Shown here piece by piece: positions 10,716-58,112 of a DNA stretch of 64,000 nucleotides. Under the pieces are notes generated by a model, which was not told the DNA's origin, did not search any database, and worked only from the letters and a program-made list of their open reading frames with translations. The translations under genes and the position numbers were made by a program. Source of the DNA: Cynocephalus volans (taxonomy: Eukaryota > Chordata > Mammalia > Dermoptera > Cynocephalidae); assembly GCF_027409185.1 (NCBI RefSeq), contig NC_084478.1:85047624-85111623 (forward strand). Reading direction: 5' to 3'. The first letter of the stretch is position 1. The number at the start of each line of letters is the position of its first letter.

Positions 10716-10731
10716 AATAAAACAAGGTTTC
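10716..10731. repeat. Target-site duplication of L1-A, left copy
   Basis: AATAAAACAAGGTTTC here and AATAAAACAAGATTTC at 17500-17515 flank the element with one mismatch. The downstream copy directly follows the A-rich tail. This shows L1-A arose by target-primed reverse transcription. Confidence 0.8.
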
Positions 10732-12274
10732 AAGATGGCGGTGGCTGCGGCGACTGGCACGTGGAGTAGCTGAGGTGGAAAAGGCGGCCACTGGGCCTCA
10801 GGCAGCCGGGAAACTTGTGGACCTTCCTCTGGCCATCTCTTAAGGGAGGACCGCTGCTGCTGGCCGGTCATGGGGGGTGACCGCCACTTTGCCCCCGGCA
10901 GGAGAGGCTGCCTCATTTACAGGCAACAGCTTTGAAGTGTGGAGCAGGAAAAGAACTGTTTCTTAGCTGCAAAAGCGAGTCTCGAAACAGGGAACACGGC
11001 GCCAGGGCTGCTGTGGATGCAGCCAGGAGCCCGGAGGCCGGGGCCGCGCTGAAGGCGGCCAGCTGCTCTATTCAGGATTCGAGGTTTCAGGCCGACATTA
11101 AAGAAGATTCCTGAGAGCGCCCGAGCCGAGCCGCGCCGCGACTGCACAGCCCAAGGCGGCAGCAGCCGAGAGCACGGAAGGCGACAAACCAGAGACAGAG
11201 AGCGAGCACCCGACCTGGCACAGCAATGTGAGTGACCCCCTGGTCCAGCTCTGTTCGGTGGGCGGATGCCCACCTGGCTCCCGCCTGCACCACCAGGCCA
11301 CTCACCGCCCCTGTGCTGCCTCCATTTTCCCAGGTGCGGGCAGCTCCGCCCTGCTCGGCCATTACTGAGCCCTCCCACTTGCTTGGCCTGGCGCAGGGCT
11401 TTCCGGACCCTGCCGACCAGCCTCCTCTCCCACTCCGTCCCCAGTTCTCTGGTGGGGCTGGTGGCGTGGGGCATCCCCGGCCAGTGTTGGGAGGGCAAGG
11501 AAGTACGGGCGGGCCGACTGTCACTCCACCACACCCTGGACTCCGGCCCCCGGTAAGCTTCCTGTTACTGGGACGCAGATACCATCTCTGCGGCCACCAG
11601 TTTGGAAAAAAGCCTAATGAATTTCTGGTTGGGAATAGTGTGGTAGGAGAGTTCCCAGGTCCGCCTGACCTGCCGGAGAGCAGGCTGCAGGCGGGCGCTA
11701 GGCTCGGTTTATACCAGGGGGATACAAAGGTGAACAAGACCCGAGAAAGATCTACACAGTGCTACAAAGGCACCCAGAGTGACCGGTCGTCTGTGCCTAG
11801 CAGAAACCTGGTAGACTTCCTGGGTGCGGCGGTGCCGAGCAGGGTCTTGAAGGCCCAGCTGATAGACGAGGGGTGCAGAAGACACGCCCCAGCCCAGCAC
11901 AGTGTGCACAGTGGGGGGAGATGTGCGGCCAGGGAGGCGGAGACTCGACAGAAACCACACACCCGGTGGGGTCGCCACTGCACGATCTAACAGCCTGGGC
12001 CAGAGCACACGGAACGGGGAGAATTCCTGCACAGGAAGTGAAAGCTCAACAGAGATCACACACCCTGTGGTACGTGATCCACCAGCCCAGCAGAGTCCAA
12101 GCTGACCAGAAAGGTGGCTCCCCGGAGAAGCCCAACACCCGAGGCAACCACACACACAAGGCGCTAGAGGCCAACTGAGCAGTCACGGAGGGAGCCATAC
12201 CAAATTGGCAACCACAGCAACATCCTAGTTAGTCATTAGTCTCAAACCGGTGGTCTGTGCAACCCCCTGCCACA
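10731..12274 (+). promoter_or_regulatory. L1-A 5' leader / internal promoter
   Basis: It begins CAAGATGGCGGTGGCTGCGG, which contains the YY1 core (AAGATGGC) found at the start of primate L1 promoters. The leader is GC- and CpG-rich and about 1.54 kb long, against AT-rich ORFs. The same leader is present in B2 (22938-24459) and L1-C (51315-52849). Internal promoter function is inferred from the family. Several GC-driven open frames occur on both strands, but they start at GTG. Confidence 0.8.
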
Positions 12275-13255
12275 ATGAATAAACACCAAAAAAAAGACAC
12301 CAGAAATACAAAAAATCAAGAAAGTACACCACCAAAAGTTAATAAATCTCAAACTCTAGATCCTATAGAACAAGAAGCCCTTGAAATGACTGACAAGGAA
12401 TTTCGAGTGATAATTCTAAGGAAACTGAATGAAATACAAGAAAACTCAGCTAGACATCATGATGAAATGAGGAAAAGTATACAGGATCTGAAAGAGGAAA
12501 TGTACAAGGAAATCAATGTCCTGAAAAAAAATGTAGCAGAACTTGCTGAACTGAAGAAGTTATTCAGCGAAATAAAAAACACAACGGAGAGTTTAACCAG
12601 CAGGCTTGTTGAAGTTGAAGAGAGAACCTCTGAACTTGAAGATGGGCTGTTTGAAATAACACAAGCAGACAAAAAGAAAGAAAAAAGAATCAAGGACATG
12701 GAAGAAAATCTGAGAGAGATATCAGACAACCTTAAGCGCTCAAATATCCGAGACATGGGTATTCCAGAAGGGTAGGAAAATGGAGATTCCACTGAAAACA
12801 TATTCAACAAAATAGTGGCAGAAAACTTCCCAGGTATAGGAAAAATCACAGATCTTCAGATCCAGGAAGCTCAATGATCTCCAAACGTATTCAACCCAAA
12901 AAGGCCTTCTCCAAGACATGTCACAGTCAAATTGGCAAAACTCAGAGACAAAGAGAGAATCTTAAAAGCTGCAAGAGAGAAGCGTCAAATCACCTATAAG
13001 GGAGCCCCAATCAGATTAACATCAGACTTTTCATCACAAACCCTAAAAGCTAGAAAGGAATGGGATGATATTTTCAAAATACTAAAAGACAAAGATTGCC
13101 AGCCAAGAATACTCTACCCTGCAAGGCTATCCTTCCGAAATGAGGGGCAAATAGTATATTTCTCAGACAAACAAAAACTGCGGGAGTTCACTACCACACG
13201 ACCAACCTTACAAGAAATCCTCAAGGGTGTATTGGGTTTGGTTCCTGAAAAATAA
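12275..13255 (+). pseudogene. L1-A ORF1 (RNA-binding protein), two premature stops
   Basis: ORF1p is the trimeric RNA chaperone that coats L1 RNA. The ATG at 12275 sits in CACAATGA and matches the start in B2 and L1-C. The frame runs 326 codons to TAA at 13253-13255. The N-terminal basic segment, the heptad coiled coil (about residues 50-150), the RRM-like region and the C-terminal domain are all in one frame. It is interrupted by TAG at 12773 (GAG in L1-C) and TGA near 12874 (CGA in L1-C, a likely CpG decay). There is no frameshift. Confidence 0.9.
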
Positions 13256-13442
13256 CTACCACTGCCATAAAAACCCAAGAAAAATCTAAACCCGCTAGTA
13301 TAATAAAAATGGCATTCATGAAGAGAAAACAAGCTAACAAAAACACTATCTACAACCTAAGGAACCAACAAACAAAGAAAGCAAACAGTAAATCAGAAAG
13401 CAAGGAACAAAAGAAACCTAAGACAACCATACAACCAATAAA

Positions 13443-16400
13443 ATGCTAGGAATAAATCAACACCTTTCAATAACAACTCTTAATGTAGAAGGCTTAAATT
13501 CCCCAATTAAAAGACACAGACTGGCTGACTTGATCAAAAAGTAGGACCCAACTATATGCTGGCTACAAAAGACCCACCTCACCCATAAAGATTCACACAG
13601 ACTAAGAGTGAAAGGATGGAAAAAGATTTACCATGCAAACAGAAAAGAAAAACTAGCTGGAGTAGCTATTCTTATATCTGACAAAATAGACTTTAAACTA
13701 AAAACCATAAAAAGAGACAATGAGGGACACTACTTAATGATAAAAGGTCTGATCCATCAAGAAGACATAACAATCATAAATATGTATGTACCCAATGTTG
13801 GAGCAGCCAGATTTATAAAACAAACTCTATTAGACCTAAAGAAGGAAATAGACACTAATACCATAATAGCAGGGGACCTGAACACCCCACTGTCAATATT
13901 AGACAGATCATCTAGGCAAAGAATCAGTAGAGAAACACAAGATCTAAACAACACTCTAGACCAATTGGAATTGGCAGATATCTACAGAACATTCCACCCA
14001 ACAACCTCAAAATATTCATTCTTCTCATCAGCACATGGATCATTCTCGAGGATAGATCACATATTAGGTCACAAATCAAGTCTCCATAAATTCAAAAAAA
14101 TTGGAATTATCCCATGTATCTTCTCAGACCACAATGGATTAAAACTAGAAATTAATAACAAAAGAAACTCTGGAAACTATACAAACACATGGAAATTAAA
14201 CAGCATTCTACTTAATGACATATGGGTCCAAGAAGAAATCAAGCAGGAAATCAAAAAATTTATTGAATCTAATGAAAACAATGATACATCATACCAAAAC
14301 CTGTGGGATACTGCAAAAGCAGTATTGAGGGGAAAATTTATTGCATTAAATGCTCACTTCAGAAGAATAGAAAGATGGCAAGTGAACAACCTAACACTTC
14401 ACCTTAAAGAACTAGAAAAACAAGAACAATCCAAACCTAAAGATAGCAGACGGAAAGAAATCATAAAGATCAGAGCAGAACTGAATGAAATTGAAAACCA
14501 AAAAACAATTCAAAAGATCAACCAATCAAAAAGTTGGTTTTTTGAAAAGATAAATAAAATTGACAAACCATTAGCATGGCTAACAAAAAAAAGAAGAGAG
14601 AAGACTCAAATAACAAAAATTAGAAATGAAAAAGGTGATATTACAACTGATTCATCTGAAATACAAGGAATCATTCGAGACTACTATAAACAACTATACG
14701 CTAACAAATTTGAAAATCTGGAGGAAATGGATAAATTTCTGGACACACACAAGCTCCCAAAACTGAACTGTGATGACGTAGAAAATTTGAACAGACCAAT
14801 AACAATAAAGGAGATTGAAGCTGTTATCAGAAGGCTCCCAACAAAGAAAAGCCCAGGACCAGATGGATTCACAGCAGAATTTAACCAAACATTCAAAGAG
14901 GAATTGACACCGATTCTTTACAAACTATTCCAAAAGATTGAAACGGACGCAAATCTCCCAAACCCATTCTATGAAGCAAACATCATCCTGATACCAAAAC
15001 CAGATAAAGATATAACCAAAAAAGAAAACTCCAGGCCAATATCCTTGATGAATATAGATGCAAAAATCCTCACTAAAATACTAGCAAACAGAATACAGCA
15101 ACACATACGTAAAATTATTCATCCTGATCAAGTGGGATTCATCCCAGGGATGCAAGGTTGGTTCAACATATGCAAATCAATAAATGTGATACACCATATT
15201 AATAAACTCAAACACGAGGACCATATGATCATCTCTATAGATGCTGAAAAAGCATTTGATAAAGTTCAGCACTCATTCATGACAAAGACCCTCTATAAGT
15301 TAGGTATAGAGGGAAAGTATCTCAACATAATTAAAGCCATATATGCCAAACCCACTGCCAATATCATCCTGAATGGGGAAAAGCTGAAAGCTTTTCCTTT
15401 AAGAACAGGAACTAGACAAGGATGCCCACTCTCACCACTCCTATTCAGCATACTGTTGGAAGTACTAGCCAGAGCAATCAGAGAAGAGAAGAAAATAAAG
15501 GGCATCCAGATTGGAAAAGATGAAGTCAAACTGTCCCTGTTTGCAGATGACATGATCCTATATATCGAACAGACTAAAGCCTCTACAAAAAAACTGTTGG
15601 AATTGATAAATGATTTCAGCACAGTAGCAGGATACAAAATCAACACACAAAAATCAGTAGCATTTCTTTTCTCCAATAGTGAACATGCAGAACGAGAAAT
15701 CAAGAAAGCCTGCCCATTTACAATAGCCACCAAAAAAATAAAATACTTAGGAATTGAATTAACCAAGGAGGTGAAAAATCTCTATAATGAGAACTACAAA
15801 CCACTGCTGAGAGAAATTAGAGAGGATACAAGAAGATGGAAAGATATTCCATGCTCTTGGATTGGAAGAATCAACATAGTGAAAATGTCCATACTACCCA
15901 AAGTGATATACAAATTCAATGCAATCCCCACCAAAATTCCAAAGACATTTTTCTCAGAAATGGAAAAAACTATTCAGACATTTATATGGAACAATAAAAG
16001 ACCACGCATAGCCAAAGCAATGCTCAGCAAAAAAAATAAAGCTGGAGGCATAACACTACCTGACTTTAAGCTGTACTACAAAGCTATAATAACCAAAACA
16101 GTATGGTACTGGCATAAAAACAGACACACTGACCAATGGAATAGAATAGAGAATCCAGAAGTCAACCCACACACTTACTGTCAGCTGATCTTTGACAAAG
16201 GCACCAAGCCTATTCAGTGGCGAAGGGACTGCCTCTTCAGCAAATGGTGCTGAGATAACTGGATATCCATATGCAGGAGAATGAAACTAGATCCATACCT
16301 CTCACCGTATACTAAAATCAACTCAAAATGGATTAAGGATTTAAATATCCACCCTGAAACAAAAAAAAACTTCTTAAAGAAAACATAGGAGAAACACTTC

Positions 16401-17272
16401 AGGAAATAGGACTGGGCACAGACTTCATGAATACAACCCCAAAAGCACGGGCAACCAAAGGAAAAATAAACAAATGGGATTATATCAAACTAAAAAGCTT
16501 CTGCACAGCAAAAGAAACAATTAAAAGAGTTAAAAGACAACCAACAGAGTGGGAGAAAATATTTGCAAAATATATATCTGACAAAGGATTAATATCCAGA
16601 ATATATAAGGAACTCAAACAACTCTACAAGAAGAAAACAAGCAACCCAATTAAAAAATGGGCAAAAGAGCTAAGTAGGCATTTCTCTAAGGAAGATATCC
16701 AAATGGCCAACAGACATATGAAAAAATGCTCAACATCACTCAGCATCCGGGAAATGCAAATCAAAACCACATTGAGATACCATCTAACCCCAGTTAGGAT
16801 GGCTAAAATCCAAAAGACTATGAACGATAAATGCTGGCGAGGCTGCGGAGAAAAAGGAACTCTCATACATTGTTGGTGGGACTGCAAAATGGTGCAGCCT
16901 CTATGGAAAATGGTATGGAGGTTCCTCAAACAATTGCCGATAGATCTACCATACAACCCAGCTATCCCACTGTTGGGAATATACCCAGAGGAATGGAAAT
17001 CATCAAGTCGAAGGTATACCTGTTTCCCAATGTTTATCGCAGCACTCTTTACAATAGCCAAGAGTTGGAACCAGCCCAAATGCTCATCATCGGATGAGTG
17101 GATACGGAAAATGTGGTATATCTACACAATGGAATACTACTCAGCTATAAAAACGAATGAAATACTGCCATTTGCAACAACATGGATGGACCTTGAGAGA
17201 ATTATATTAAGTGAAACAAGTCAGGCACAGAAAGAGAAATACCACATGTTCTCACTTATTGGTGGGAGCTAA
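13443..17272 (+). pseudogene. L1-A ORF2 (endonuclease-reverse transcriptase), broken
   Basis: ORF2p nicks target DNA and reverse-transcribes L1 RNA. The frame starts at ATG 13443 (MLGINQH). The AP-endonuclease domain has N14, E43, GDLNTP and the C-terminal SDH motif. The RT domain has the FADD catalytic motif encoded near 15540. A Cys-rich CWRGCGEKG motif lies near the end. Damage: TAG at 13542 (codon 34; CAG in L1-C), TGA at 16251 (TGG in L1-C) and a 2-base insertion in the A run at 16361-16369. The longest open part is 13545-16250. The gap to ORF1 is about 190 bp, as in L1-C. Confidence 0.92.
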
Positions 17273-17499
17273 AAATTAATATATAAATTCACACACACAC
17301 ACACACACACAAACGGGGGGGAAGAAGATATAACAACCACAATTATTTGAAGTTGATACGACAAGCAAACAGAAAGAACATTGATGGGGGGAGGGGGGAG
17401 GGAGAAGGGAGGGAGGTCTTGGTGATGGGGAGCAATAATCAGCTGCAATGTATATCGACAAAATAAAATTAAAAACAAACAAACAAAAATAAATAAATA
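17273..17499 (+). other. L1-A 3' UTR with CA repeat, G-rich tract and A-rich tail
   Basis: After the ORF2 stop there is (CA)n at 17290-17310, then a run of G blocks at 17384-17416 separated by A or GA that could fold as a G-quadruplex. An A-rich tail with AATAAA repeats follows. The same order is seen in B2 and L1-C. G-rich polypurine tracts are a conserved feature of mammalian L1 3' UTRs. Confidence 0.8.
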
Positions 17500-17515
17500 A
17501 ATAAAACAAGATTTC

Positions 17516-18585: not shown

Positions 18586-18934
18586 CTAAAGGAACAGAAG
18601 GACTCAATCCCCAGCCCAGCTGAGTGTGTGCCAATCAGAGAGGCACCCCACCAGAGAGGCCTGAGATCCACGGAGACCACGCACCCCATGGTGCCAGCGT
18701 GCAAGCCAGCAGCTAAGCCTCGCTGCTGCCAGATTCCATCCCCAGCCCAGCCAAGTGCATGCTGACCAGAGAGGAGCCTCCCTGGAGAGGCCCAAGACCT
18801 GAAGCAACCATGCACCCAAGGCGCCAGTGGGCAGCAGAACAGACACTGAGGCAGCCGTGCCAAATTGGCAGCCCCAGCAGCAGCCTAGCCAGACAATAGT
18901 GTCAAACCAGTGGACCGTGAAACCCCCTAGGACA

Positions 18935-19899
18935 ATGACTAAACATCAAAGGAAAGATACCAGAAATATGAAAAATCAAAAAAGTACACCACCAAAGGGT
19001 AATAACTCTCAAGCTCTAGATCCTATAAAACAAGAAACCCTTGAAATGTCTGACAAGGAATTTAGAATGATAATTCTAAGGAAACTAAATGAGATACAAG
19101 AAAACTCAGCTAGACAACACGATGAAACAAGGAAAAGCATACAGCACCTGAAAGAAGAAATGTACAAAGAAATCAATACCCTGAAAAAGAATGTAGCAGA
19201 GCTTGCCAAGCTGAAGAATTCATTCAACGAAATCAAAAACACAACAGAGAATTTAACCAGCAGGCTTGCAGAAGCAGAAGAGAGAACTTCTGACCTTGAA
19301 GATGGGCTGTTTGAAATAACACAGGCAGACAAAAAAAAAAAAAAAGAATTAAAAACATTGAAGAAAATCTAAGAGAGATATCAGACAACCTTAAGCACTC
19401 AAATATCCGAGTCATGGGTATTCCAGAAGGGGAGGAAAAGGAGATTGCATTGAAAACATATTCAACAAAATAGTGGCAGAAAACTTCCCAGGTATAGGAA
19501 AAGTCACAGATCTTCAGATTCAGGAAGCTCAAAGATCCCCAACTGCATTCAACCTAAAAAGGTCTTCTCCAAGAAGTCAAATTGGCAAAACTCAAAGAAA
19601 AAGAGAGAATCTTAAAAGCTGCAAGAAATAAGCAACAAATCACCTATAAGGAAGCCCAAATCAGGCTAACATCAGACTTTTCATCACAAACCCTAAAAGT
19701 CAGAAAGGAATGGATGATATATTCAAAATACTAAAAGACAGAGATTGCCAGCCAAGAATACTCCACAAGGCTATCCTTCTGAAATGAAGGGAAAATAGTA
19801 TATATCTCAGACAAACAAAAACTACAGGAGTTCACTACCACACGACCACCCTTACAAGAAATTCTCAAGGGAGTACTGGGTTTGGTACCTGAAAAATAA
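18935..19899 (+). pseudogene. L1-B ORF1, frameshifted
   Basis: The ATG at 18935 opens a frame related to L1-C ORF1 (MTKHQRKDT against MNKHQKKDT). The coiled-coil region is open to about 19372, where a run of 14 A's around 19331-19344 has shifted the frame. Further indels follow, such as the loss of bases near 19433 and 19570. The C-terminal part is recognisable up to the TAA at 19897-19899. Confidence 0.85.
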
Positions 19900-20080
19900 C
19901 GACCACTGCCATAAAAACTCAAGAAAAATCAAAACCCACTAGTATAATAAAAGTGCCAACAATGAAGAGAATAAAAAAGTTTATCTACAACCCAAGGAAC
20001 CAACAAATACAGAAGACAAACAGTAAATCAGAAAGAAAGGAACAAAAGACACTAAAGATATCCAAACAAAAATCAGTAAA

Positions 20081-22930
20081 ATGCTAGGAGTAAATCAACA
20101 CTTTTCAATAACAACTCTTAATGTAGAAGGATTGAATTCCCCACTCAAAAGACAAAGACTGACTGACTGGATTACAAAGGAGGACCCAACTATATGCTCC
20201 CTTCAAGAGACGCAACTAACCTGTAAAGACTCACATAGACTAAGAGTGAAAGGATGGAAAAAGATTTACCATGCAAACAAATATGAAAAACAAGTTGGAG
20301 TAGCTATTCTTATATCTGACAAAATAGACTTTAAACTAAAAACCATAAAAAGAGATAATGAGGGCCACTACATAATGATAAAAGGATTGATCCATCAAGA
20401 AAACATAACAATCATAAATATATATGCACCCAATGTCGGAGCAGCCAGATTTATAAAGCAAACTCTATTAGACCTAAAGAAGGAAATAGACACTAATACC
20501 ATAATAGCAGGGGACCTCAACACCCCACTATCAATACTGGACAGATCACCTAGGCAAAGAATCAGCAGAGAAACCGAAGATCTAAACAACACTCTAGACC
20601 AATTGGACTTGGCAGATATGTACAGAACATTCCATCCAACAACCACAGAATATTCATTCTTCTCATCAGCACATGGATCACTCTTCAGGATAGATCACAT
20701 GTTAGGTCACAAATCAAGTCTCAACAAATTCAAAAAAATTGGAATTATCCCATGTATCTTCTCAGACTACAATGGATTAAATTAGAAAACAATAACAAAG
20801 GAAATTCTGGAAACTATACAAAGACATAGAAATTAAACAGCATTCTACTTAAAGACATATGGGTCTGAGAAGAAATCAAACAGGAAATCAAAAAATTTAT
20901 TGAAACTACTGAAAACAATGACACATCATACCAAAACCTGTCAGATACTGCAAAAGCAGTACTAAGGGGGAAATTTATCACATTAAATGCTCACCTAGAA
21001 GAATGGAAAGATGGCAAGTGAACAACCTAATACTTCACCTTAAAGAACTAGAAAAACAAGAACAATCCAAACTGAAAGTTAGCAGATGGAAAGAAATCAT
21101 TAAGATAAGAGCAGAACGTAATAAAATTGAAACCCAAAAAATGATACAAAACATCAATGAATCAAAAAGTTGGTTTTTTTGAAAAGATAAATAAAATTGA
21201 CAAACCATTAGCATGGCTAATTAAAAAAAGAAGAGAGAAGACCCAAATGACAAATATTAGAAGTGAAAAAGGTGATATGAGAACTAATACCTCTGAAATA
21301 CAAGGAATCATTCTAGACTACTATAAACAGCTATATGCCAACAAATTTGAAAATCTGGAAGAAATGGAAAAATTTCTAGACACACACAAACTACCAAAAC
21401 TGAGCCAAGAAGATGGAGAAAATCTGAACAGACCAATAACTATAAATGAGATTGAAGCTGTTATCAGAAGGCTCCCAAAAAAGAAAAGCCCAGCACCAGA
21501 TGGATTCACAGCAGAATTCTACCAAACAGTCAAAAAGGAATTGACACCAATTCTCTACAAACTATTCCAAAAGATTGAAACAGAGGCAATTCTCCCAAAC
21601 TCATTCTATGAAGCAAACATCACTGTGATACTAAAACCAGCTAAACATACAACTAAAAAAAAAAACTAAAGGCCAATATCCTTGAGAACTATAAACGCAA
21701 AAATCCTCAATACAATACTAGCTAACAGAATACAGCAACACATACACAAAATTAAACACCATGATCAAGTGGGATTCATCCCAGGGATGCAAGGTTGGTT
21801 CAACATACGCAAATCAATAAATGTGATACACCATATTAATAAACTCAAACACGAGGACCATATGATCATCTCTATAGATGCTGAAAAAGCATTTGATAAA
21901 GTTCAGCACTCATTCATGACAAAGACCCTCTATAAGTTAGGTATAGAGGGAAAGTATCTCAACATAATTAAAGCCATATATGCCAAACCCACTGCCAATA
22001 TCATCCTGAATGGGGAAAAGCTGAAAGCTTTTCCTTTAAGAACAGGAACTAGACAAGGATGCCCACTCTCACCACTCCTATTCAGCATACTGTTGGAAGT
22101 ACTAGCCAGAGCAATCAGAGAAGAGAAGAAAATAAAGGGCATCCAGATTGGAAAAGATGAAGTCAAACTGTCCCTGTTTGCAGATGACATGATTCTATAT
22201 ATCAAACAGCCTAAAGCCTCTAAGAAAAACTCTTCGAGTTGATAAATGATTTCAGAAAAGTAGCAGGATACAAAATCAACACACAAAAATCAGTAGCATT
22301 TCTTTTCTCCAAGAGTGAACATGCAGAAAGCGAAATCAAGAAATCTTGCCCAGGGCTGAGCCCGTGGCGCACTTGGTAGAGTGCTGCGCTGGCAGCGGGC
22401 GACGCTCCCGCCGCGGGTTCGGATCCTATATAGGACTGACCGGGGCACTCACTGGCTGAGTGCCGGTCACGAAAAAACGACAAAAAAAAAAAAGAAAAAG
22501 AAAAGAAATCTTGCCCATTTACAATAGCCACCAAAAAAAATAAAATACTTAGGAATTGAGTTAACCAAGGATGTGAAAAATCTCTATAATGAGAACTACA
22601 AGCCACTGCTGAAAAAAATTAAACAGAACACAAGAAGATGGAAAGATATCCCATGCTCTTGGATTGGATGGACCAACATTGTTGAAATGTCCATACTACC
22701 CAAAGCGATATACAAATTCAATGCAATCCCCATAGAAATTCCAATGACATTTTTCTCAGAAATGGAAAAAACTATCCAGACATTTATATGGAATAACAAA
22801 AGACCACGCATAGCCAAAGCAATTCTGAGCAAAAAAGTAAAGCTGGAGGCATAACACTACCTGACTTTAAACTCTACTACAAAGCTATAATAACCAAACA
22901 GCATGGTACTGGCATAAAAACAGACAGACT
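20081..22930 (+). pseudogene. L1-B ORF2, fragmented
   Basis: The ATG at 20081 (MLGVNQH) opens the endonuclease domain to a stop near 20783, with N14, E43 and GDLNTP present. The RT domain is in pieces: 21157-21669 and 21682-22242, the latter including the FADD motif. A SINE interrupts at 22353-22502. The palm region resumes at 22573-22854, and the gene is cut at 22930 by B2. The segment 21763-22193 is anomalously similar to L1-A. Confidence 0.88.
22353..22502 (+). mobile_element. tRNA-derived SINE (CYN-like, short variant) in L1-B
   Basis: It begins GGGCTGAGCCCGTGGCGCAC, has a B box GGTTCGGATCC and an A-rich tail with AAGAAAAAG. The target duplication AAGAAATCTTGCCCA is at 22338-22352 and 22503-22517, perfect over 15 bp. 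Same variant as at 5196 and 26137. Confidence 0.92.
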
Positions 22931-22937
22931 GGTTTTT

Positions 22938-24459
22938 TGAAGATGGCGGTGGCTGCGGCGGTTGGCGCAGAGTAGCTGAGGTGGAAAAGGTGGCCACTGG
23001 ACCTCAGACAGCCGGGAAACTTGTGGACCTTCCTCTTGCCATCTCTTAAGGGAGGACCGCTGCTGGTGGCCGGTCGTGGGGGCTGACCGCCACTTTGCCC
23101 TTGGCAGGAGAAGCTGCCTCATTTACAGGCAACAGCTTTGAAGAATGGAGCAGGAAAAAAACTGTGTCGTAGCTGGAAAGCGAGTCTCTAAACAGGGAAC
23201 ATGGCACCAGGGCTGCTGTGGATGCAGACAAGATCCCAGAGGAAGGGGCCACGCTGAAGGCGGCCAGCTGCCCTATTCAGGATTTGAGGTTTCAGGCCGG
23301 CATAAAAGAAGATTCCTGGGAGCGCCCGAGCAAGCAGCCCGAGGCGGCGGTGGCCGAGAACCAGGAAGGCGACAAACCAGAGGCAGAGAGTGAGTGCCCG
23401 ACCTGACACAGCCCTGTGAGTGACCCCTGGCCCAGCCCTACTTGGGGGGCTGATGCCCACCCAGCTTCTGCCTGCATCACAGGGCCACTCACCTCCCAGG
23501 GGCTGCCTCCATTTTCCCAGGTGGGGGCAGCTCCGCCCAGCTCGGCTCCTCACTGAGCCTTCCCACTTGCTTGCCCCGGCGTGGGGCTTCCTGGGGACTG
23601 CGGGCCGGCCTCCCCTCCCACTCCCTCCGTGGTTCTCTGGTGGGGCTGGTGGCGTGGGGCGTCCCCGGCCGGTGTTGGGAGGGCAAGGAAGTACGGGCAG
23701 GGCCGACTGTCACTCCACCACACCCTGGACTCCGGCCCACGGTAAACTTCCTGTTACTAGGAGGCAGATACCATCTCTGTGGCCACCAGTTCGGAAAAGT
23801 GCCTAACCAATTTCTGGTTGGGAATAGTGTGGTAGGAGAGTACCCAAGTCCGCTTGAACCTGCCGGAGAGCTGATTGCAGGCGGACGCTAGACTCGGTCC
23901 ATGCCGGGGGGATACAAAGGTGAACAAGTCCCGAGAAAGATCTACATAGTGCTACAAAGGCACCCAGGGCGACCGGTCGTCTGTGCCTAGCAGAAACCTG
24001 GTAGACTTCCTGGGTGAGGCAGTGCCGAGCAGGGTCTTGAAGGCCCAGCTGATAGACGAGGGTTGCAGAAGACACGTCCCAGCCCAGCCCAGTGTGTACA
24101 GAGTGGGGAGACGTGCAGCCAGGGAGGCGGAGACTCGACAGAAACCACACATCCTGTGGGGTCACCACTGCACGATCCAAAAGCCTGGGCCAGAGCACAC
24201 GGAACAGGGAGAAATCCTGCACGGGAAGTGAAAGCTCAACAGAAATCACACACCCTGTGGTACATGATCCAGCAGCCCAGCAGAGTCCATGCTGACCAGA
24301 AAGGTGGCTCCCGGAGAGGCCCAAGACCCGAGGGAACCACACACACAAGGCACTAGAGGCCAACTGAGCAGTCACGGAGGGAGCCATACCAAATTGGCCA
24401 CCACAGCAACATCTTAGTCAATAGTCTCAAACCGGTGAACCGTGAAACCCCTTGCCACA
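22938..24459 (+). promoter_or_regulatory. B2 5' leader / internal promoter
   Basis: It is colinear with the L1-A and L1-C leaders over about 1.5 kb, including the terminal AAGATGGCGG motif and the segment just before ORF1. CpGs are partly decayed relative to L1-C. Promoter function is inferred from the family. Confidence 0.75.
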
Positions 24460-25434
24460 ATGAATAAACATCAAAAAAAAGATTCCAGAAATACAAAAAA
24501 TCAAGAAAGTACACCACCAAAAGTTAATAAATCTCTAACTCTAGATCCTATAGAACAAGAAGCCCTTGAAATGACTGACAAGGAATTTCGAGTGATAATT
24601 CTAAGGAAACTGAATGACATACAAGAAAACTCACCTAGACATCATGATGAAATGAGGAAAAGTATACAGGATCTAAAAGAAAATGTACAAGGAAATCAAT
24701 GTCCTGAAAAAAAATGTAGCAGAACTTGTTGAACTGAAGAAGTTATTCAGCGAAATAAAAAAACACAACGGAGAGTTTAACCAGCAGGCTTGTCAAAGTT
24801 GAAGAGAGAACCTCTGAACTTGAAGATGGGCTGTTTGAAATAACACAAGCAGAAAAAAGAAAAAAGAATCAAAGACATTGAAGAAAATCTGAGAGAGATA
24901 TCAGACAACCTTAAGCGCTCAAATATCCGAGTCATGGGTATTCCAGAAGGGGAGGAAAATGGAGATTCCATTGAAAACATATTCAACAAAATAGTGGCAG
25001 AAAACTTCCCAGGTATAGGAAAAATCACAGATCTTCTGATCAAGGAAGCTCAATGATCTCCAAACGTATTCAACCCAAAAAGGCCTTCTCCAAGACATGT
25101 TATAGTCAAATTGGCAAAACTCAGAGACAAAGAGAGAATCTTAAAAGCTGCAAGAGAGAAGCGCCAAATCACCTATAAGGGAGCCCCAATCAGGCTAACA
25201 TCAGACTTTTCATCACAAACCCTAAAAGCTATAAAGGAATGGGATGGTATATTCAAAATACTAAAAGACAAAGATTGCCAGTCAAGAATACTCTACCCTG
25301 CAAGGCTATCCTTCTGAAATGAAGGGCAAATAGTATATTTCTCAGACAAACAAAAACTGCGGGAGTTCACTACCACACGACCACCCTTACAAGAAATCCT
25401 CAAGGGAGTACTGGGTTTGGTTCCTGAAAAATAA
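24460..25434 (+). pseudogene. B2 ORF1, frameshifted
   Basis: The ATG at 24460 (MNKHQKKD) matches L1-C. The frame is lost by a 2-base deletion near 24680 (within the coiled coil), with another indel in an A run near 24760. A TGA near 25053 matches the CpG-type decay also seen in L1-A. The C-terminal domain is open at 25111-25317, and the expected stop is at 25432. Confidence 0.88.
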
Positions 25435-25621
25435 CTACCACTGCCATAAAAACCCAAGAATAATCAATACCCACTAGTATAATAAAAATGGCATTCATGA
25501 AGAGAAAACAAGCAAACAAATACACTATCTACAACCTAAGGAACCAACAAACACAGAAGCCAAACAGTAAATCAGAAAGCAAGGAACAAAAGACACCTAA
25601 GACAACCAAACAACCAATAAA

Positions 25622-26426
25622 ATGCTAGGAATAAATCAACACCTTTCAGTAACAACTCTTAATGTAAAAGGCTTAAATTCCCCAATCAAAAGACACAGAC
25701 TGGCTGACTGGATCAAAAAGGAGGACCCAACTATATGCTGCCTACATAAGGACCACCTCACCCATAAAGATTCACATAGACTAAGAGTGAAGGGATGGAA
25801 AAAGATTTACCATGCAAACAGAAAAGAAAAACGAGCTGGAGTAGCTAATCTTATATCTGACAAAATAGACTTTAAACTAAAAACCATAAAAAGAGACAAT
25901 GAGGGACACTACTTAATGATAAAAGGACTGATTCATCAAGAAGACATAACAATCATAAATATGTATGCACCCAATGTTGGAGCAGCCAGATTTATAAAAC
26001 AAACTCTATTAGACTTAAAGAAGGAAATAGACACTAATACCATAATAGCAGGGAACTGAACACCCCACTGTCAATATTAGACAGATCATCTAGGGAAAGA
26101 ATCAGTAGAGAAAAACAAGATCTAAACAATACTCTAGGGCCGAGCCCGCGGCGCACTTGGGAGAGTGCGGAGCTGGGAGTGCGGCGACGCTCCCTCCGCG
26201 GGTTCGGATCCTATATAGGAATGGCCAGTGCACTCACTCACTGGCTGAGTGCGGGTCACAAAAAAAGACAAAATAAATAAATAAATAAATAAAAACAATA
26301 CTCTAGACCAAATGGAATTCGACATTTGCAACAACATGGATGGACCTTGAGAGAATTATATTAAGTGAAACAAGTCAGGCACAGAAAGAGAAATACCACA
26401 TGTTCTCACTTATTGGTGGGAGCTAA
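25622..26426 (+). pseudogene. B2 ORF2 remnant
   Basis: The endonuclease domain is open from ATG 25622 to 26057, where a base loss in GGGAACTGAAC (GGGGACCTGAAC in L1-C) breaks the frame just before the catalytic D145 region. A SINE follows. After the deletion junction at 26320/26321, only the extreme C-terminus remains, ending at TAA 26424. No RT domain is left. Confidence 0.9.
26137..26292 (+). mobile_element. tRNA-derived SINE (CYN-like, short variant) in B2
   Basis: It starts GGGCCGAGCCCGCGGCGCAC, with B box GGTTCGGATCC and a tail of AAATA repeats. The target duplication AAACAATACTCTA is at 26124-26136 and 26293-26305. As it lies inside a young L1, it is among the younger insertions in the window. 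Confidence 0.92.
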
Positions 26427-26650
26427 AAATTAATATATAAATTCACACACACACACACAAAACCGGGGGGGGGAAGAAGATATAACAACCACAATTACTT
26501 GAAGTTGATACGACAAGCAAACAGAAAGGATATTGTTGGGGGGGAGGGGGGAGGGAGAAGGGAGGGAGGTTTTGGTGATGGGGAGCAATAATCAGCCACA
26601 ATGCATATCGACAAAATAAATAAAAATAAAATAAATAAATAAATAAATAA
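26427..26650 (+). other. B2 3' UTR, G-rich tract and tail
   Basis: Same order as in L1-A: a CA repeat near 26444-26459, a G-rich run at 26538-26569, then a tail of AAATA repeats. Target duplication not evident after the tail. Confidence 0.75.
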
Positions 26651-27610
26651 ATAAAAATTTAAAAATTTAAAAAAAGACAACCCACGGAATGAGGGAAAGT
26701 ATTTTCAAACCATATATCTGATAAAGGTCTAGACTCCAGAATATTTAAAGAATGCTTACAACTCAATAACAAGAAGGCAAACAACCCAATTAAAAAATGA
26801 ATGAAGACTTAGATAGTTTTCTAAGGGAAATACACAAATGGCCAAAACGCACATGAAATGATGCTCGACTTTATTAGCCATCAGTGAAATGCAAATCAAA
26901 ACTACTCAAGATACCATTTCACACCCACCAGATGTGAAATGCTGGTGAGTATGTGGAAAAATTAGAGCCCTCATACATTGCTGGTTGGAATCTAAACTGG
27001 TGCAGCTACTATGGAAAATAGTTCGGCATTTCTTCAAAAAGTTAAACATAGACTTGCCACATGACCCAGCAGTTCTGCTTGTAGGTATAGACTCAAACGA
27101 ACTAAAAACAGGAATTCAAGCAAGTACCTGTATACAGATGCTCATTGCAGCACTATTCACGATAATCCAAAATTGGAAACAACTCAAATGTATCTATCAA
27201 TGATAAATGGATTGTAAACAAAATGTGATATATCCATATAATTAAATATTATTTGGCCATAAAAAGGAATGACGTACCAATATATGCCACAACATGGATG
27301 AACTTCGAAAACATTATGCTAAGTAAAAGAAGCCAGACACAAAGGGTCACATATTTCATGATTCCATTTATATTAAATATCCAGAATAGCTAAACCTACA
27401 GGGACAGGAATCAAATTAGTCATTGCCAGGAGCTAGGGGAAGGGGGAAAATGGGAAGTGACTGATTTACATGTATGGAGTTTCCTTTGGGGGTGATAAAA
27501 ATGTTTTTGAACTAGATAGAGATGATGGCTGCACAACACCACAAACGTACTAAATATCACTGAATTATACACATTAAAATAGTTAGCTTTATGTTATGAG
27601 TAACACTTCA
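26651..27610 (+). mobile_element. Old L1 (L1M-type) 3' end
   Basis: A degraded ORF2 C-terminus: 'gaaatgcaaatcaaaactac', then 'acatgacccagcagttctgc' and 'catggatgaacttcgaaaac', followed by an old 3' UTR. It is clearly more diverged than L1-B, so it is not the missing end of L1-B. The open piece at 26985-27203 is a remnant. Confidence 0.85.
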
Positions 27611-39470: not shown

Positions 39471-39619
39471 GGGCCGGCCCGTGGCTCACTCAGGAGAGTG
39501 CGGTGCTGAGAACACCAAGGCCCCGGGTTCGGATCCCATATACGGATGGCCGGTTCGCTCACTGGCTGAGCATGGTGCTCACAACACCAAGTCAAGGGTT
39601 AAGATCCCCTTACCGGTCA

Positions 39620-39646
<27 letters not shown>
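39471..39646 (+). mobile_element. Dimeric tRNA-derived SINE (CYN-like)
   Basis: The first unit starts GGGCCGGCCCGTGGCTCACT, with A-box-like TGGCTCACTCAGGAGAGTG and B box GGTTCGGATCC. The second, from about 39546, repeats GGCCGGTTCGCTCACTGGCT with a degenerate B box (GGTTAAGATCC), followed by a tail of over 20 A's. The duplication AAAAAGATCCTCTCT is at 39456-39470 and 39647-39661. A head-to-tail dimer of tRNA-like units is characteristic of colugo CYN SINEs. Confidence 0.92.
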
Positions 39647-51314: not shown

Positions 51315-52849
51315 CTGAGTTTCAAGATGGCGGCGGCTGCGGCGGCTGGCGCGGAGTAGCTGAGGTGGAAAAGGTGGCCACTGGGCTTCAGGCAGCCGGG
51401 AAACTTGTGGACCTTCCTCTGGCCATCTCTTAAGGGAGGACTGCTGCTGCTGGCCGGTCGTGGGGGCTCAACGCCACTTTGCCCCCGGCAGGAGAGGCTG
51501 CCTCATTTACAGGCAACAGCTTTGAAGTGTGGAGCAGGAAAAGAACTGATTCTTAGCTGCAAAAGCGAGTCTTGAAACAGGGAACACAGCGCCAGGGCTG
51601 CTGTGGATGCAGCCAGGATCCCGGAGGCTGGGGCCGCGCTGAAGGCGGCCAGCTGCCCTATTCAGGATTCGAGGTTTCAGGCCGGCATTAAAGAAGATTC
51701 CTGGGAGTGCCCGAGCAGTGCCGCGACTGAACAGCCCGAGGCGGCAGCGCCGAGAACACGGAAGGCAACAAACCAGAGACAGAGCGAGCGCCCAACCTGG
51801 CACAGCACTGTGAGTGATCCCTGGCACAGCTCTGTTCGGGGGGTGGATGCCCACGCGGCTCCCACCTGCACCACCAGGCCACTCACTGCCCCGGTGCTGC
51901 CTCCATTTTCCCAGATGCGGGCAGCTCCGCCCTGCTCGGCCATCACTGAGCCCATTTGCTTGGCCTGGCGTGGGGCTTTCCGGAGCCTGCGGGCCGGCCT
52001 CCTCTCCCACTCCCTCCGCGGTTCTCTGGCGGGGCTGGGGGTGTGGGGCGTCCCGACCAGTGTTGGGAGGGCTAGGAAGTACGGGCGGGCCGACTGTCAC
52101 TCCACCACACCCTGGACTCCGCCCCGGTAAACTTCCTGTTACTGGGAGGCAGATACCATCTCTGCGACCACCAGTTTGGAAAAAAGCCTAACGAATTTCT
52201 GGTTCGGAATAGTGTGGTAGGAGAGTTCCCAGGTCCGCTTGAACCTGCCGGAGAGCAGGCTGCAGGCGGGCACTAGACTCGGTTTATACCGGGGGGATAC
52301 AAAGGTGAACAAGACCCGAGAAAGATCTACACAGTGCTACAAAGGCACCCAGAGAGACCGGTCGTCTGTGCCTAGCAGAAACCTGGTAGACTTCCTGGGC
52401 GAGGCGGTGCTGAGCAGGGTCTTGAAGGCCCAGCTGATAGACGAGGGGTGCAGAAGACACACCCCAGCCCAGCACAGTGTGCACAGAGGGGGGAGACATG
52501 CGGCCAGGGAGGCGGAGACTCGACAGAAACCACACACCCGGTGGGGTCGCCACTGCACGATCTAACAGCCTGGGCCAGAGCACACGGAACGGGGAGAAGT
52601 CCTGTACAGAAAGTGAAAGCTCAACAGAGATCACACACCCTGTGGTACGTGATCCACCAGCCCAGCAGAGTCCAAGCTGACCAGAAAGGTGGATCCCCGG
52701 AGAAGCCCAAGACCCGAGGCAACCACACACACAAGACACTAGAGGCCAACTGAGCAGTCACGGCGGGAGCCATACCAAATTGGCAACCACAGCAACATCC
52801 TAGTTAGTCATTAGTCTCAAACCGGTGGACTGTGAAACCCCCTGCCACA
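51315..52849 (+). promoter_or_regulatory. L1-C 5' leader / internal promoter
   Basis: It starts CTGAGTTTCAAGATGGCGGC with the YY1-like core AAGATGGC at 51324-51331. GC- and CpG-rich, about 1.53 kb. It retains more CpGs than the leaders of L1-A and B2, which fits a younger age. Promoter role inferred from the family. Confidence 0.8.
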
Positions 52850-53830
52850 ATGAATAAACACCAAAAAAAAGACACCAGAAATACAAAAAATCAAGAAAGT
52901 ACACCACCAAAAGTTAATAAATCTCATACTCTAGATCCTATAGAACAAGAAGCCCTTGAAATAACTGACAAGGAATTTCGAGTGATAATTCTAAGGAAAC
53001 TGAATGAGATACAAGAAAACTCAGCTAGACATCATGATGAAATGAGGAAAAGTATACAGGATCTGAAAGAGGAAATATACAAGGAAATCAATGTCCTGAA
53101 AAAAAATGTAGCAGAACTTGCTGAACTGAAGAAGTTATTCAGCGAAATAAAAAACACAACGGAGAGTTTAACCAGCAGGCTTGTCGAAGTTGAAGAGAGA
53201 ACCTCTGAACTTGAAGATGGGCTGTTTGAAATAACACAAGCAGACAAAAAGAAAGAAAAAAGAATCAAGGACATGGAAGAAAATCTGAGAGAGATATCAG
53301 ACAACCTCAAGCGCTCAAATATCCGAGTCATGGGTATTCCAGAAGGGGAGGAAAATGGAGATTCCATTGAAAACATATTCAACAAAATAGTGGCAGAAAA
53401 CTTCCCAGGTATAGGAAAAATCACAGATCTTCAGATCCAGGAAGCTCAACGATCTCCAAACGTATTCAACCCAAAAAGGCCTTCTCCAAGACATGTCATA
53501 GTCAAATTGGCAAAACTCAGAGACAAAGAGAGAATCTTAAAAGCTGCAAGAGAGAAGCGTCAAATCACCTATAAGGGAGCCCCAATCAGGTTAACATCAG
53601 ACTTTTCATCACAAACCCTAAAAGCTAGAAAGGAATGGGATGATATTTTCAAAATACTAAAAGACAAAGATTGCCAGCCAAGAATACTCTACCCTGCAAG
53701 GCTATCCTTCCGAAATGAGGGGCAAATAGTATATTTCTCAGACAAACAAAAACTGCGGGAGTTCACTACCACAAGACCACCCTTACAAGAAATCCTCAAG
53801 GGAGTACTGGGTTTGGTTCCTGAAAAATAA
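52850..53830 (+). CDS. L1 ORF1 protein, intact (326 aa)
   Basis: The only uninterrupted L1 ORF1 in the window. It encodes the RNA-binding trimeric chaperone of the L1 particle. I place the start at ATG 52850 (MNKHQKKDT), conserved in all young copies, not at the in-frame upstream codon at 52832. Layout: basic N-terminus (1-45), heptad coiled coil with many Leu, Glu and Lys (about 50-150), an RRM-like domain containing RVMGIPEGEE (about 155-250), and a C-terminal domain ending LGLVPEK. The length is close to the human ORF1p of 338 aa. It stops 187 bp before ORF2. Expression is not shown by sequence alone. Confidence 0.92.
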   Translation: MNKHQKKDTRNTKNQESTPPKVNKSHTLDPIEQEALEITDKEFRVIILRKLNEIQENSARHHDEMRKSIQDLKEEIYKEINVLKKNVAELAELKKLFSEIKNTTESLTSRLVEVEERTSELEDGLFEITQADKKKEKRIKDMEENLREISDNLKRSNIRVMGIPEGEENGDSIENIFNKIVAENFPGIGKITDLQIQEAQRSPNVFNPKRPSPRHVIVKLAKLRDKERILKAAREKRQITYKGAPIRLTSDFSSQTLKARKEWDDIFKILKDKDCQPRILYPARLSFRNEGQIVYFSDKQKLREFTTTRPPLQEILKGVLGLVPEK

Positions 53831-54017
53831 CTACCACTGCCATAAAAACCTAAGAAAAATCTAAACCCGCTAGTACAATAAAAATGGCATTCATGAAGAG
53901 AAAACAAGCTAACAAAAACACTATCTACAACCTAAGGAACCAACAAACAAAGAAACCAAACAGTAAATCAGAAAGCAAGGAACAAAAGACACCTAAGACA
54001 ACCAAACAACCAATAAA

Positions 54018-57000
54018 ATGCTAGGAATAAATCAACACCTTTCAATAACAACTCTTAATGTTAAAGGCTTAAATTCCCCAATTAAAAGACACAGACTGGC
54101 TGACTGGATCAAAAAGCAGGACCCAACTATATGCTGCCTACAAGAGACCCACCTCACCCATAAAGATTCACACAGACTAACAGTGAAAGGATGGAAAAAG
54201 ATTTACCATGCAAACAGAAAAGAAAAACGAGCTGGAGTGGCTATTCTTATATCTGACAAAATAGACTTTAAACTAAAAACCATAAAAAGAGACAATGAGG
54301 GACACTACTTAATGATAAAAGGACTGATCCATCAAGAAGACATAACAATCATAAATATGTACGCACCCAATGTTGGAGCAGCCAGATTTATAAAACAAAC
54401 TCTATTAGACCTAAAGAAGGAAATAGACAATAATACCATAATAGCAGGGGACCTGAACACTCCACTGTCAATATTAGACAGATCATCTAGGCAAAGAATC
54501 AGTAGAGAAACACAAGATCTAAACAAGACTCTAGACCAATTGGAATTGGCAGATATCTACAGAACATTCCACCCAACAACCTCAGAATATTCATTCTTCT
54601 CATCAGCACATGGATCATTCTCCAGGATAGATCACATATTAGGTCACAAATCAAGTCTCAATAAATTCAAAAAACTTGGAATTATCCCATGTATCTTCTC
54701 AGACCATAATGGATTAAAACTAGAAATTAATAACAAACAAAACTCTGGAAACTATACAAACACATGGAAATTAAACAGCATTCTACTTAATGACATATGG
54801 GTCCAAGAAGAAATCAAGCAGGAAATCAAAAAGTTTATTGAAACTAATGAAAACAATGATACATCATAGCAAAACCTGTGGGATACTGCAAAAGCAGTAT
54901 TGAGGGGAAAATTTATTGCATTAAATGCTCACTTCAGAAGAATAGAAAGATGGCAAGTGAACAACCTAACACTTCACCTTAAAGAACTAGAAAAACAAGA
55001 ACAATCCAAACCTAAAGTTAGCAGACGGAAAGAAATCATTAAGATCAGTGCAGAACTGAATGAAATTGAAAACCAAAAAACAATTCAAAAGATCAACGAA
55101 TCAAAAAGTTGGTTTTTTGAAAAGATAAATAAAATTGACAAACCATTAGCATGGCTAACAAAAAAAAGAAGAGAGAAGACTCAAATAACAAAAATTAGAA
55201 ATGAAAAAGGCGATATTACAACTGATTCATCTGAAATACAAGGAATCATTCGAGACTACTACAAACAACTATACGCCAACAAATTTGAAAATCTGGAGGA
55301 AATGGATAAATTTCTGGACACACACAAGCTCCCAAAACTGAACCGTGAAGACGTAGAAAATTTGAACAGACCAATAACAATAAAGGAGATTGAAGCTGTT
55401 ATCAGAAGGCTCCCAACAAAGAAAAGCTCAGGACCAGATGGATTCACAGCAGAATTTTACCAAACATTCAAAGAGGAATTGACACCGATTCTTTACAAAC
55501 TATTCCAAAAGATTGAAACGGACGCAAATCTCCCAAACTCATTCTATGAAGCAAAAATCATCCTGATACCAAAACCAGGTAAAGATATAACCAAAAAAGA
55601 AAACTACAGGCCGATATCCTTGATGAATATAGATGCAAAAATCCTCACTAAAATACTAGCAAACAGAATACAGCAACACATACGAAAAATTATTCATCAC
55701 GATCAAGTGGGATTCATCCCAGGGATGCAAGATTGGTTCAACATACGCAAATCAATAAATGTGATACACCATATCAATAAACTCAAACACAAGGACCATA
55801 TGATCATCTCTATAGATGCTGAAAAAGCATTTGATAAAGTTCAGCACTCATTCATGACAAAGACCCTCTATAAGTTAGGTATAGAGGGAAAGTATCTCAA
55901 CATAATTAAAGCCATATATGCCAAACCCACTGCCAATATCATCCTGAATGGGGAAAAGCTGAAAGCTTTTCCTTTAAGAACAGGCACTAGACAAGGATGC
56001 CCACTCTCACCACTCCTATTCAACATAGTGTTGGAAGTACTAGCCAGAGCAATCAGAGAAGAGAAGGAAATAAAGGGCATCCAGATTGGAAAAGATGAAG
56101 TCAAACTGTCCCTGTTTGCAGATGACATGATCCTATATATCGAACAGCCTAAAACCTCTACAAAAAAACTGTTGGAATTGATAAATGATTTCAGCACAGT
56201 AGCAGGATACAAAATCAACACACAAAAATCAGTAGCATTTCTTTTCTCCAATAGTGAACATGCAGAAGGAGAAATCAAGAAAGCCTGCCCATTTACAATA
56301 GCCACCAAAAAAATAAAATACTTAGGAATTGAGTTAACCAAGGAGGTGAAAAATCTCTATAATGAGAACGACAAACCACTGCTGAGAGAAATTAGAGAGG
56401 ATACAAGAAGATGGAAAGATATTCCATGCTCTTGGATTGGAAGAATCAACATAGTGAAAATGTCCATACTACCCAAAGTGATATACAAATTCAATGCAAT
56501 CCCCATCAAAATTCCAAAGACATTTTTCTCAGAAATGGAAAAAACTATTCAGACATTTAAATGGAACAATAAAAGACCACGAATAGCCAAAGCAATGCTC
56601 AGCAAAAAAAATAAAGCTGGAGGCATAACACTACCTGACTTTAAGCTATACTACAAAGGTATAATAACCAAAACAGTATGGTACTGGCATAAAAACAGAC
56701 ACACTGACCAATGGAATAGAATAGAGAATCCATAAAACAACCCACACACTTACTGCCATCTGATCTTTGACAAAGGCACCAAGCCTATTCACTGGGGAAG
56801 GGACTGCCTCTTCAGCAAGTGGTGCTGGGATAACTGGATATCGATATGCAGGAGAATGAAACTAGATCCATACCTCTCACCGTATACTAAAATCAACTCA
56901 AAATGGATTAAGGATTTAAATATACACCCTGAGACAATAAAACTTCTTAAAGAAAACATAGGAGAAACACTTCAGGAAATAGGACTGGGCACAGACTTCA

Positions 57001-57845
57001 TGAATACGACCCCAAAAGCACGGGCAACCAAAGGAAAAATAAACAAATGGGATTATATCAAACTAAAAAGCTTCTGCACAGCAAAAGAAACAATTAAAAG
57101 AGTTAAAAGACAACCAACAGAGTGGGAGAAAATATTTGCAAAATATACATCTGACAAAGGATTAATATCCAGAATATATAAGGAACTCAAACAACTTTAC
57201 AAGAAGAAAACAAGCAACCCAATTAAAAAATGGGCAAAAGAGCTAAGTAGGCATTTCTCTAAGGAAGATATACAAATGGCCAACAGACATATGAAAAAAT
57301 GCTCAACATCACTCAACATCCGGGAAATGCAAATCAAAACCACATTGAGATACCATCTAACCCCAGTTAGGATGGCTAAAATCCAAAAGACTATGAACGA
57401 TAAATGCTGGCGAGGCTGCGGAGAAAAAGGAACTCTCATACATTGCTGGTGGGACTGCAAAATGGTGCAGCCTCTATGGAAAATGGTATGGAGGTTCCTT
57501 AAACAATTGCAAATAGATCTACCATACGACCCAGCCATCCCACTGTTGGGAATATACCCAGAGGAATGGAAATCATCAAGTCGAAGGTATACCTGTTCCC
57601 CAATGTTCATCGCAGCACTCTTTACAATAGCCAAGAGTTGGAACCAGCCCAAATGCCCATCATCAGATGAGTGGATACGGAAAATGTGGTACATCTACAC
57701 AATGGAATACTACTCAGCTATAAAAATGAATGAAATACTGCCATTTGCAACAACATGGATGGACCTTGAGAGAATTATATTAAGTGAAACAAGTCAGGCA
57801 CAGAAAGAGAAATACCACATGTTCTCACTTATTGGAGGGAGCTAA
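54018..57845 (+). pseudogene. L1-C ORF2, one frame with two premature stops
   Basis: The frame from ATG 54018 to TAA 57845 is 1275 codons, the family's usual length. Endonuclease (1-240) has N14, E43, GDLNTP (D145, N147) and a FSDHN motif near 228-231. RT has FADD at residues 700-703. [10 protein letters not shown]...HCWWDC Cys/His motif lies near 1130-1150. Only two changes stop it: TAG at 54867 (codon 284; TAC in L1-A) and TAA at 56733 (codon 906, in the stretch following the palm). No frameshift exists. The first stop would leave just an endonuclease fragment. Confidence 0.94.
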
Positions 57846-58112
57846 AAATTAATATATAAATTCACACACACACATACACACACACACACACACACAAATG
57901 GGGGGGGGAAGAAGATATAACAACCACAATTATTTGAAGTTGATACAACAAGCAAACAGAAAGGACATTGTTGGGGGGGATGGGGGGAGGGAGAAGGGAG
58001 GGAGGTTTTGGTGATGGGGAGCAATAATCAGCTACAATGTATATCGACAAAATAAAATTAAAAATAAAAATAAAAAATAAAAGATAAACTGCCTTTTAAA
58101 AAGGAAAAAAAA
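57846..58112 (+). other. L1-C 3' UTR, G-rich tract, A tail and possible transduced segment
   Basis: A (CA)n tract at 57865-57896 is followed by G blocks at 57972-58006 that could form a G-quadruplex. An A-rich tract with AATAAA at about 58049-58082 comes next, then about 22 bp of non-A sequence (GATAAACTGCC... to 58104), then a second pure A run, then the target duplication. Confidence 0.8.

What the first reader, a model, noticed from the sequence alone, without database searches (positions are those of the whole stretch)
21763..22193. 431-bp near-identical block shared by old L1-B and young L1-A: likely gene conversion
By direct reading, 21763-22193 and 15126-15556 have the same length and differ at one site only (TACGC against TATGC, a CpG-type change). 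Just outside, the two copies differ at roughly 10% of sites (for example 21321-21480 against 14685-14845), with diverged protein words on both sides. L1-C differs from both at six or more sites within the block (such as KLKHED against KLKHKD, FSILLEV against FNIVLEV, EEKKIK against EEKEIK), so B carries A's particular variants. An abrupt patch of identity inside an old element is best explained by recent conversion of B by A or a close relative about 6.6 kb away. The block covers the RT palm.
Basis: partly seen in the sequence, partly recalled or inferred. Interest (0 to 1): 0.8.

Follow-up and report, generated by a model that had tools for sequence, protein, structure and literature searches.

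The report
Gene-conversion patch between neighbouring L1s
A 431-letter stretch inside an older dead jumping gene appears to have been overwritten by a copy of the same stretch from a younger dead relative about 6.6 kb away; this is a clean example of an ordinary DNA-repair outcome, not a new mechanism.

Summary
Over 4066 aligned sites of L1-A, -B and -C, the longest stretch without a B-private base is this one (434 sites; next 61). The window's own genome allowed two further tests. (1) The 8 B-like copies examined lack the block: at diagnostic sites B is B-type at 43 of 47 outside and A-type at 8 of 8 inside. (2) A departs from the majority of 38 other young copies at 5 block sites and B shares 4; each of the 38 carries exactly one of those four, A and B all four. 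The donor is most likely locus A. A is not the recipient: its block is as close to its subfamily as its flanks. Best reading: non-allelic gene conversion, A to B. Assembly error cannot be excluded without reads, but is unlikely in an N-free window of a 181-Mb contig. The kind is well known; interest is low to moderate.

The parts
21763..22193 (+). Conversion tract in recipient L1-B (longest B-private-free interval 21760-22193); encodes part of the reverse-transcriptase domain of ORF2
   Evidence: RVT_1 match of 21670-22239
15126..15556 (+). Donor stretch in L1-A
   Evidence: One mismatch to the tract; among the 40 scored genomic matches the only one besides B with all four shared derived bases
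10727..17506 (+). L1-A, young full-length L1, ORF2 interrupted (902-aa and 304-aa open pieces)
   Evidence: about 11-bp direct repeat AATAAAACAAG at both ends read
18661..22935 (+). L1-B, L1 of another, older type, with in-frame stops and one-base gaps; its 5' limit is approximate and its 3' part is missing beyond the position equivalent to A 16131
22353..22502 (+). SINE-like insertion inside L1-B (named by eye), 160 bp downstream of the tract, flanked by repeated AAGAAATCTTGCCCA
   Evidence: Read; insertion of 165 columns against A in the alignment
51319..58088 (+). L1-C, 96.4% identical to A over its length; third sequence for the test
22936..26660 (+). L1-D, lying directly behind B; 3' end approximate

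Best explanation
A break or stalled repair in L1-B was repaired by copying about 431 to 434 bases from L1-A, 6.6 kb upstream in the same orientation (on the same chromatid, the sister or the homologue), with no crossover. This is non-allelic gene conversion, most likely by synthesis-dependent strand annealing. It replaced B's own RT-palm sequence with A's, together with four changes that A had collected. Later A gained a C-to-T change at 15171 (and probably the change at 15124), while B gained none in the tract. Shown: the patch, its sharp edges, the direction, and that A carries a combination not found in the other copies examined. Inferred: the initiating break, the annealing pathway, the germline timing and the order of A's changes. 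No function is expected; both elements are broken.
For:: the patch and its edges. B departs from the majority of 38 young copies at 4 of 431 sites inside the block and 107 of 1176 outside; A at 5 of 431 inside and 21 of 1183 outside, so A is not the recipient; four bases (15216 G, 15448 G, 15453 C, 15492 A) shared by A and B against that majority; each of the 38 next-best scored copies has exactly one of them; the A/B residues at these codons are rare in 120 L1-type proteins (123-124 aligned rows): S 0 (N in 123), L 1 (V in 122), E 0 (K in 115), K 2 (E in 84, D in 26); among conserved codons where A is the changed copy, B has A's residue at 3 of 4 inside and 0 of 7 outside; diagnostic sites B-type 43 of 47 outside, A-type 8 of 8 inside; the 8 B-like copies differ from B by 5.8-8.8% over the block positions they cover, much as in the flanks; of 59 rows only B shows a clean b-a-b switch.
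Against: The difference at 15171 means B is not a letter-perfect copy of A as assembled; an allele of A or an unscored or unassembled relative could have been the donor. Outside the block B also shares 4 of 18 rare A bases (one of them, 15125, is the base of 7 of 8 B-like copies), so a few shared rare bases alone prove little; the Fisher test on that sharing gives only P=0.03. One B-like copy, L052, is itself A-type at 3 of the 7 diagnostic sites it covers at 15123-15556. No reads, second individual or second species were available.
Confidence: 0.93

Rival explanations
1. Local assembly chimera: A reads, or reads of an A allele, were used to fill B's block.
For: No reads could be examined; the one mismatch is a CpG C/T of the kind expected between alleles. 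Sequencing method and joins of the assembly are not known here.
Against: The window has no N and lies in a 181-Mb contig of a 2.81-Gb assembly in 130 contigs. A and B differ at about one site in ten around the block. B carries the majority base at 15171 (35 of 38 copies), not A's assembled base.
Confidence: 0.04
2. B was born mosaic, through template switching during reverse transcription or from a recombinant master element, and the block is part of its subfamily.
For: The B-A divergence is partly subfamily divergence (third-position bias), so a mosaic birth is a fair question; a few other copies have mixed diagnostic bases.
Against: The 8 B-like copies examined do not have the block. The block has no B-private change where about 22 would be expected even at B's codon-position-1 rate. 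It carries A's rare changes.
Confidence: 0.01
3. The donor was another young L1 (a third copy or an unassembled one), not A.
For: One mismatch to A; the genome search scored only 40 of 781 candidates and skips very common words.
Against: After A, the scored copies differ from B at 4 to 7 sites, and each of the 38 has only one of the four shared bases. A lies 6.6 kb away, in the same direction.
Confidence: 0.05
4. Strong purifying selection on the RT palm explains the identity.
For: The block lies in the RVT_1 match, and A and C share their longest identical run (193 bp) inside it.
Against: B is a broken copy with stops and one-base gaps. Selection would not copy unusual A residues at nearly invariant positions, nor stop at 22194 inside the same domain.
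Confidence: 0.005

Closest known systems
Non-allelic gene conversion between neighbouring transposable elements, surveyed in primate Alu elements (PMC8230782: passages seen)
   Same: Partial replacement of one copy by a relative, giving a mosaic element; the passages cite a range of about 10 kb, and report partial conversion in 38 of 52 AluS/AluY loci and younger AluY replacing older AluS in 40 of those 52.
   Different: Here the elements are L1s about 9-10% apart, the tract is about 431 bp, and the donor can be traced to one copy.
Gene conversion involving LINE elements: repair of a break in a chromosomal LINE by conversion with endogenous LINEs in mouse cells (Tremblay, Jasin and Chartrand 2000, seen only as cited in passages of PMC3055243), and a LINE at the edge of X-Y conversion in primates (PMC3055243, passages)
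   Same: L1 sequence takes part in homology-directed repair.
   Different: Those are an induced break in cultured cells and an X-Y boundary; this is a natural interstitial tract between two L1s 6.6 kb apart.
Interlocus gene conversion in general (Mansai et al. 2011, PMC3924818: passages seen)
   Same: Mean tract lengths mostly 50 to several hundred bp and identity mainly above 80% are described there; the present case fits both.
   Different: Nothing essential.

Membership tests
Non-allelic gene conversion | Stretch of near-identity with abrupt edges on both sides inside otherwise diverged copies | tested here: met
Non-allelic gene conversion | Non-reciprocal: the donor keeps its own sequence | tested here: met
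   A's block departs from the majority of 38 young copies at 5 of 431 sites, its flanks at 21 of 1183
Non-allelic gene conversion | Recipient carries the donor's own changes | tested here: met
   B shares 4 of A's 5 departures; each of 38 other copies has only one of the four
Non-allelic gene conversion | Recipient's relatives lack the tract | tested here: met
   8 B-like copies examined (6 covering 394-434 of 434 sites, 2 only 135 and 176) differ from B by 5.8-8.8% there and are mostly B-type; L052 is mixed, 3 of 7 sites A-type
Non-allelic gene conversion | Both flanks of the recipient stay in place (no crossover, deletion or duplication) | tested here: met
   B is collinear with A across the tract and B-type on both sides
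Non-allelic gene conversion | Patch present in raw reads and in other individuals | not testable with these tools
   No reads or second individual held
L1 (LINE-1) retrotransposon, for A and B | ORF2 with endonuclease and reverse-transcriptase domains | tested here: met
   A: PF03372 and PF00078, and the 902-aa piece aligns over its length to human L1 ORF2p residues 35-936. B: only PF00078 in 21670-22239 was tested; its other parts are placed by DNA similarity to A

The most novel reading that the evidence does not exclude
Conversion between L1 subfamilies about 9% apart is common at close range in this genome, so that many old L1s carry young patches that distort their subfamily assignment and age. 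The present tract would then be one visible example of a genome-wide homogenising process that tolerates divergence at which heteroduplex rejection (recalled, not looked up) is usually expected to act. Among the 57 other genomic copies examined none showed a clean switch of this kind, but they were chosen by similarity, not by neighbourhood.
Probability: 0.07. Interest if true: 0.5.

Novelty: new member of a known kind. Interest (0 to 1): 0.25.

Why it matters
It is an unusually readable case: donor, recipient, direction, edges and relative age can all be read from one chromosome. It could serve as a positive control for screens of conversion among L1s and is a reminder that part of an old element can be misdated by its identity to a young family. 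It changes no view of L1 biology.

Tried and rejected
Conserved-domain explanation: rejected. Mosaic birth: rejected on the copies seen. A as recipient: rejected. Base 15125 as a further shared A-derived base: it first looked so (36 of 38 young copies have the other base), but T is the base of 7 of 8 B-like copies, so it was dropped. Other conversion patches among A, C and D: none stood out (longest D-private-free run 157 sites, longest A=C run 193). One search read only plus-strand loci and lost 9 of 19; it was redone with all 19. Literature, listings of nine searches: (colugo plus LINE-1) listed 4 papers, none about L1 conversion by title and start of abstract. Passages of PMC9675761 and PMC6598467 were seen and not used. 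Tremblay 2000 and Liskay 1987 were not held. Rfam at gathering thresholds found nothing in the window.

Full report
Observation. The block 21763-22193 of L1-B and 15126-15556 of L1-A have equal length and one mismatch. In 50-column windows the A-B difference is mostly 2-9 per 50 in ORF2 on both sides (0 to 13 over the whole alignment) and falls to 1 and then 0 in seven consecutive windows inside, rising to 7 of 49 at 22194. In a three-way alignment of A, B and C (4066 ungapped columns) there are 349 B-private sites, none in the 431 of the block; the longest run without one is 434 sites (21760-22193) and the next is 61. At the outside rate of 9.6% the chance of none is about 1e-19 if sites are independent; shuffles of the 438 polymorphic columns reach the observed A=B score in 0 to 4 of 20000.

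Anatomy. A (10727-17506) and C (51319-58088) are 96.4% identical L1s. B (about 18661-22935) lacks the 3' part, carries a SINE-like insert at 22353-22502, 160 bp after the tract, and has three in-frame stops and several one-base gaps against A in ORF2. L1-D begins directly behind B at 22936. The tract encodes part of the RT domain (PF00078) and its translation ends at FADDM (the motif name is recalled). B-private changes in ORF2 fall 37/44/94 on codon positions 1/2/3, so B belongs to a different subfamily and is not merely older.

Direction. Inside the block A differs from C at 8 of 431 sites. A departs from the majority of 38 young genomic copies at 5 of 431 sites inside and 21 of 1183 outside, C at 3 of 431 and 10 of 1183, B at 4 of 431 inside and 107 of 1176 outside. 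Only B changes character at the block, so B is the recipient.

Donor. The window's genome (2,814,384,482 bases, 130 contigs) was searched with the block; 40 of 781 first-look candidates were scored. After B itself the best match is A. The other 38 scored copies were all fetched; they differ from B at 4 to 7 sites of the block. A departs from their majority at 15171, 15216, 15448, 15453 and 15492; B shares the last four. Each of the 38 copies has exactly one of these four. They were picked by likeness to B's block, so the frequency of each base among them is inflated; what counts is that none of them has two. Against 120 L1-type proteins, the best listed of 3227 (123-124 aligned rows), the A/B residues are rare: S in 0 (N in 123), L in 1 (V in 122), E in 0 (K in 115), K in 2 (E in 84, D in 26). 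At codons conserved in at least 85% of rows where A is the changed copy, B shares the change at 3 of 4 inside and 0 of 7 outside (the fourth shared codon, at 15492, misses that filter). These look like changes of one copy rather than of an active lineage (inference). Against: outside the block B shares 4 of the 18 rare A bases (majority at least 60%), one of which is the B-type base, so sharing alone is only weakly significant (P=0.03); the case rests on all lines together.

Relatives of B. A search with B's left flank (20800-21762) scored 40 of 9144 candidates; 39 are not B itself, and 19 of these came back as loci and were examined, 20 were not. By left flank I classed 8 as B-like (distance to B at most 1.05 times the distance to A, so L052 and L066 are marginally nearer A) and 11 as A-like. 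The 8 B-like copies differ from B by 7.9-10.1% in the left flank and 5.8-8.8% in the block; 6 cover 394-434 of its 434 sites, L052 and L060 only 176 and 135. At sites where A and C agree and at least 70% of the B-like copies have another base, B is B-type at 43 of 47 outside (2 A-type, 2 other) and A-type at 8 of 8 inside. With a stricter set of 35 sites and 59 rows (B, C and 57 copies; the B-like 8 and the 38 young copies defined the sites, B did not), B is B-type at 25 of 27 sites outside the block (1 A-type, 1 other) and A-type at 8 of 8 inside, and by eye only B shows a clean b-a-b switch. L019, L053, L056 and L057 have mixed bases along their length and L052 is A-type at 3 of the 7 sites it covers in the bracket; I take these for older or intermediate copies, untested.

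Timing. B shares 4 of A's 5 departures, so the event falls at roughly 0.7 of A's branch, with a wide interval of 0.36-0.96. 15171 is a CpG site where T recurs (3 of 38 young copies, 6 of 8 B-like), so the single difference carries little weight. No absolute date is claimed.

Mechanism. Non-reciprocal replacement of about 431-434 bp with both flanks kept is non-allelic gene conversion, most simply by synthesis-dependent strand annealing after a break in B (inferred). Published mean tract lengths of mostly 50 to several hundred bp and identity mainly above 80% fit (PMC3924818, passages), as does the roughly 10-kb range cited for Alu elements (PMC8230782, passages). Break repair in a LINE by conversion from other LINEs in mouse cells is cited in PMC3055243 (passage).

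Artefact. Reads were not available, and how the assembly was made is not known here. The window has no N and lies in a 181-Mb contig. B carries the majority base at 15171, not A's assembled one. An assembly chimera is unlikely but not excluded.

Verdict.

Noticed in passing
22900-26700: L1-D starts at the cut 3' edge of B (equivalent to A 16131) and is followed at about 26672 by an older L1 fragment beginning at the equivalent of A 16532 (69-76% to A). No clear target-site duplication was seen by eye (at best AAAAACAGACA against AAAAAAAGACA), so D may have inserted with a deletion of target DNA between B and the older L1.
   Followed up: partly
26100-26340: L1-D jumps from the equivalent of A about 13960 to A about 17156, losing most of ORF2, next to a SINE-like insert with the repeat AACAATACTCTAG on both sides.
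   Followed up: partly
39547-39621 and 41864-41936: tRNA-Val-like and tRNA-Ile-like calls fall in gaps between the matches of an older L1 (38887-43926); probably tRNA-derived SINE insertions rather than genes.
   Followed up: no
L019, L052, L053, L056, L057: L1 copies with mixed A-type and B-type diagnostic bases; they may be intermediate subfamilies or further mosaics.
   Followed up: no
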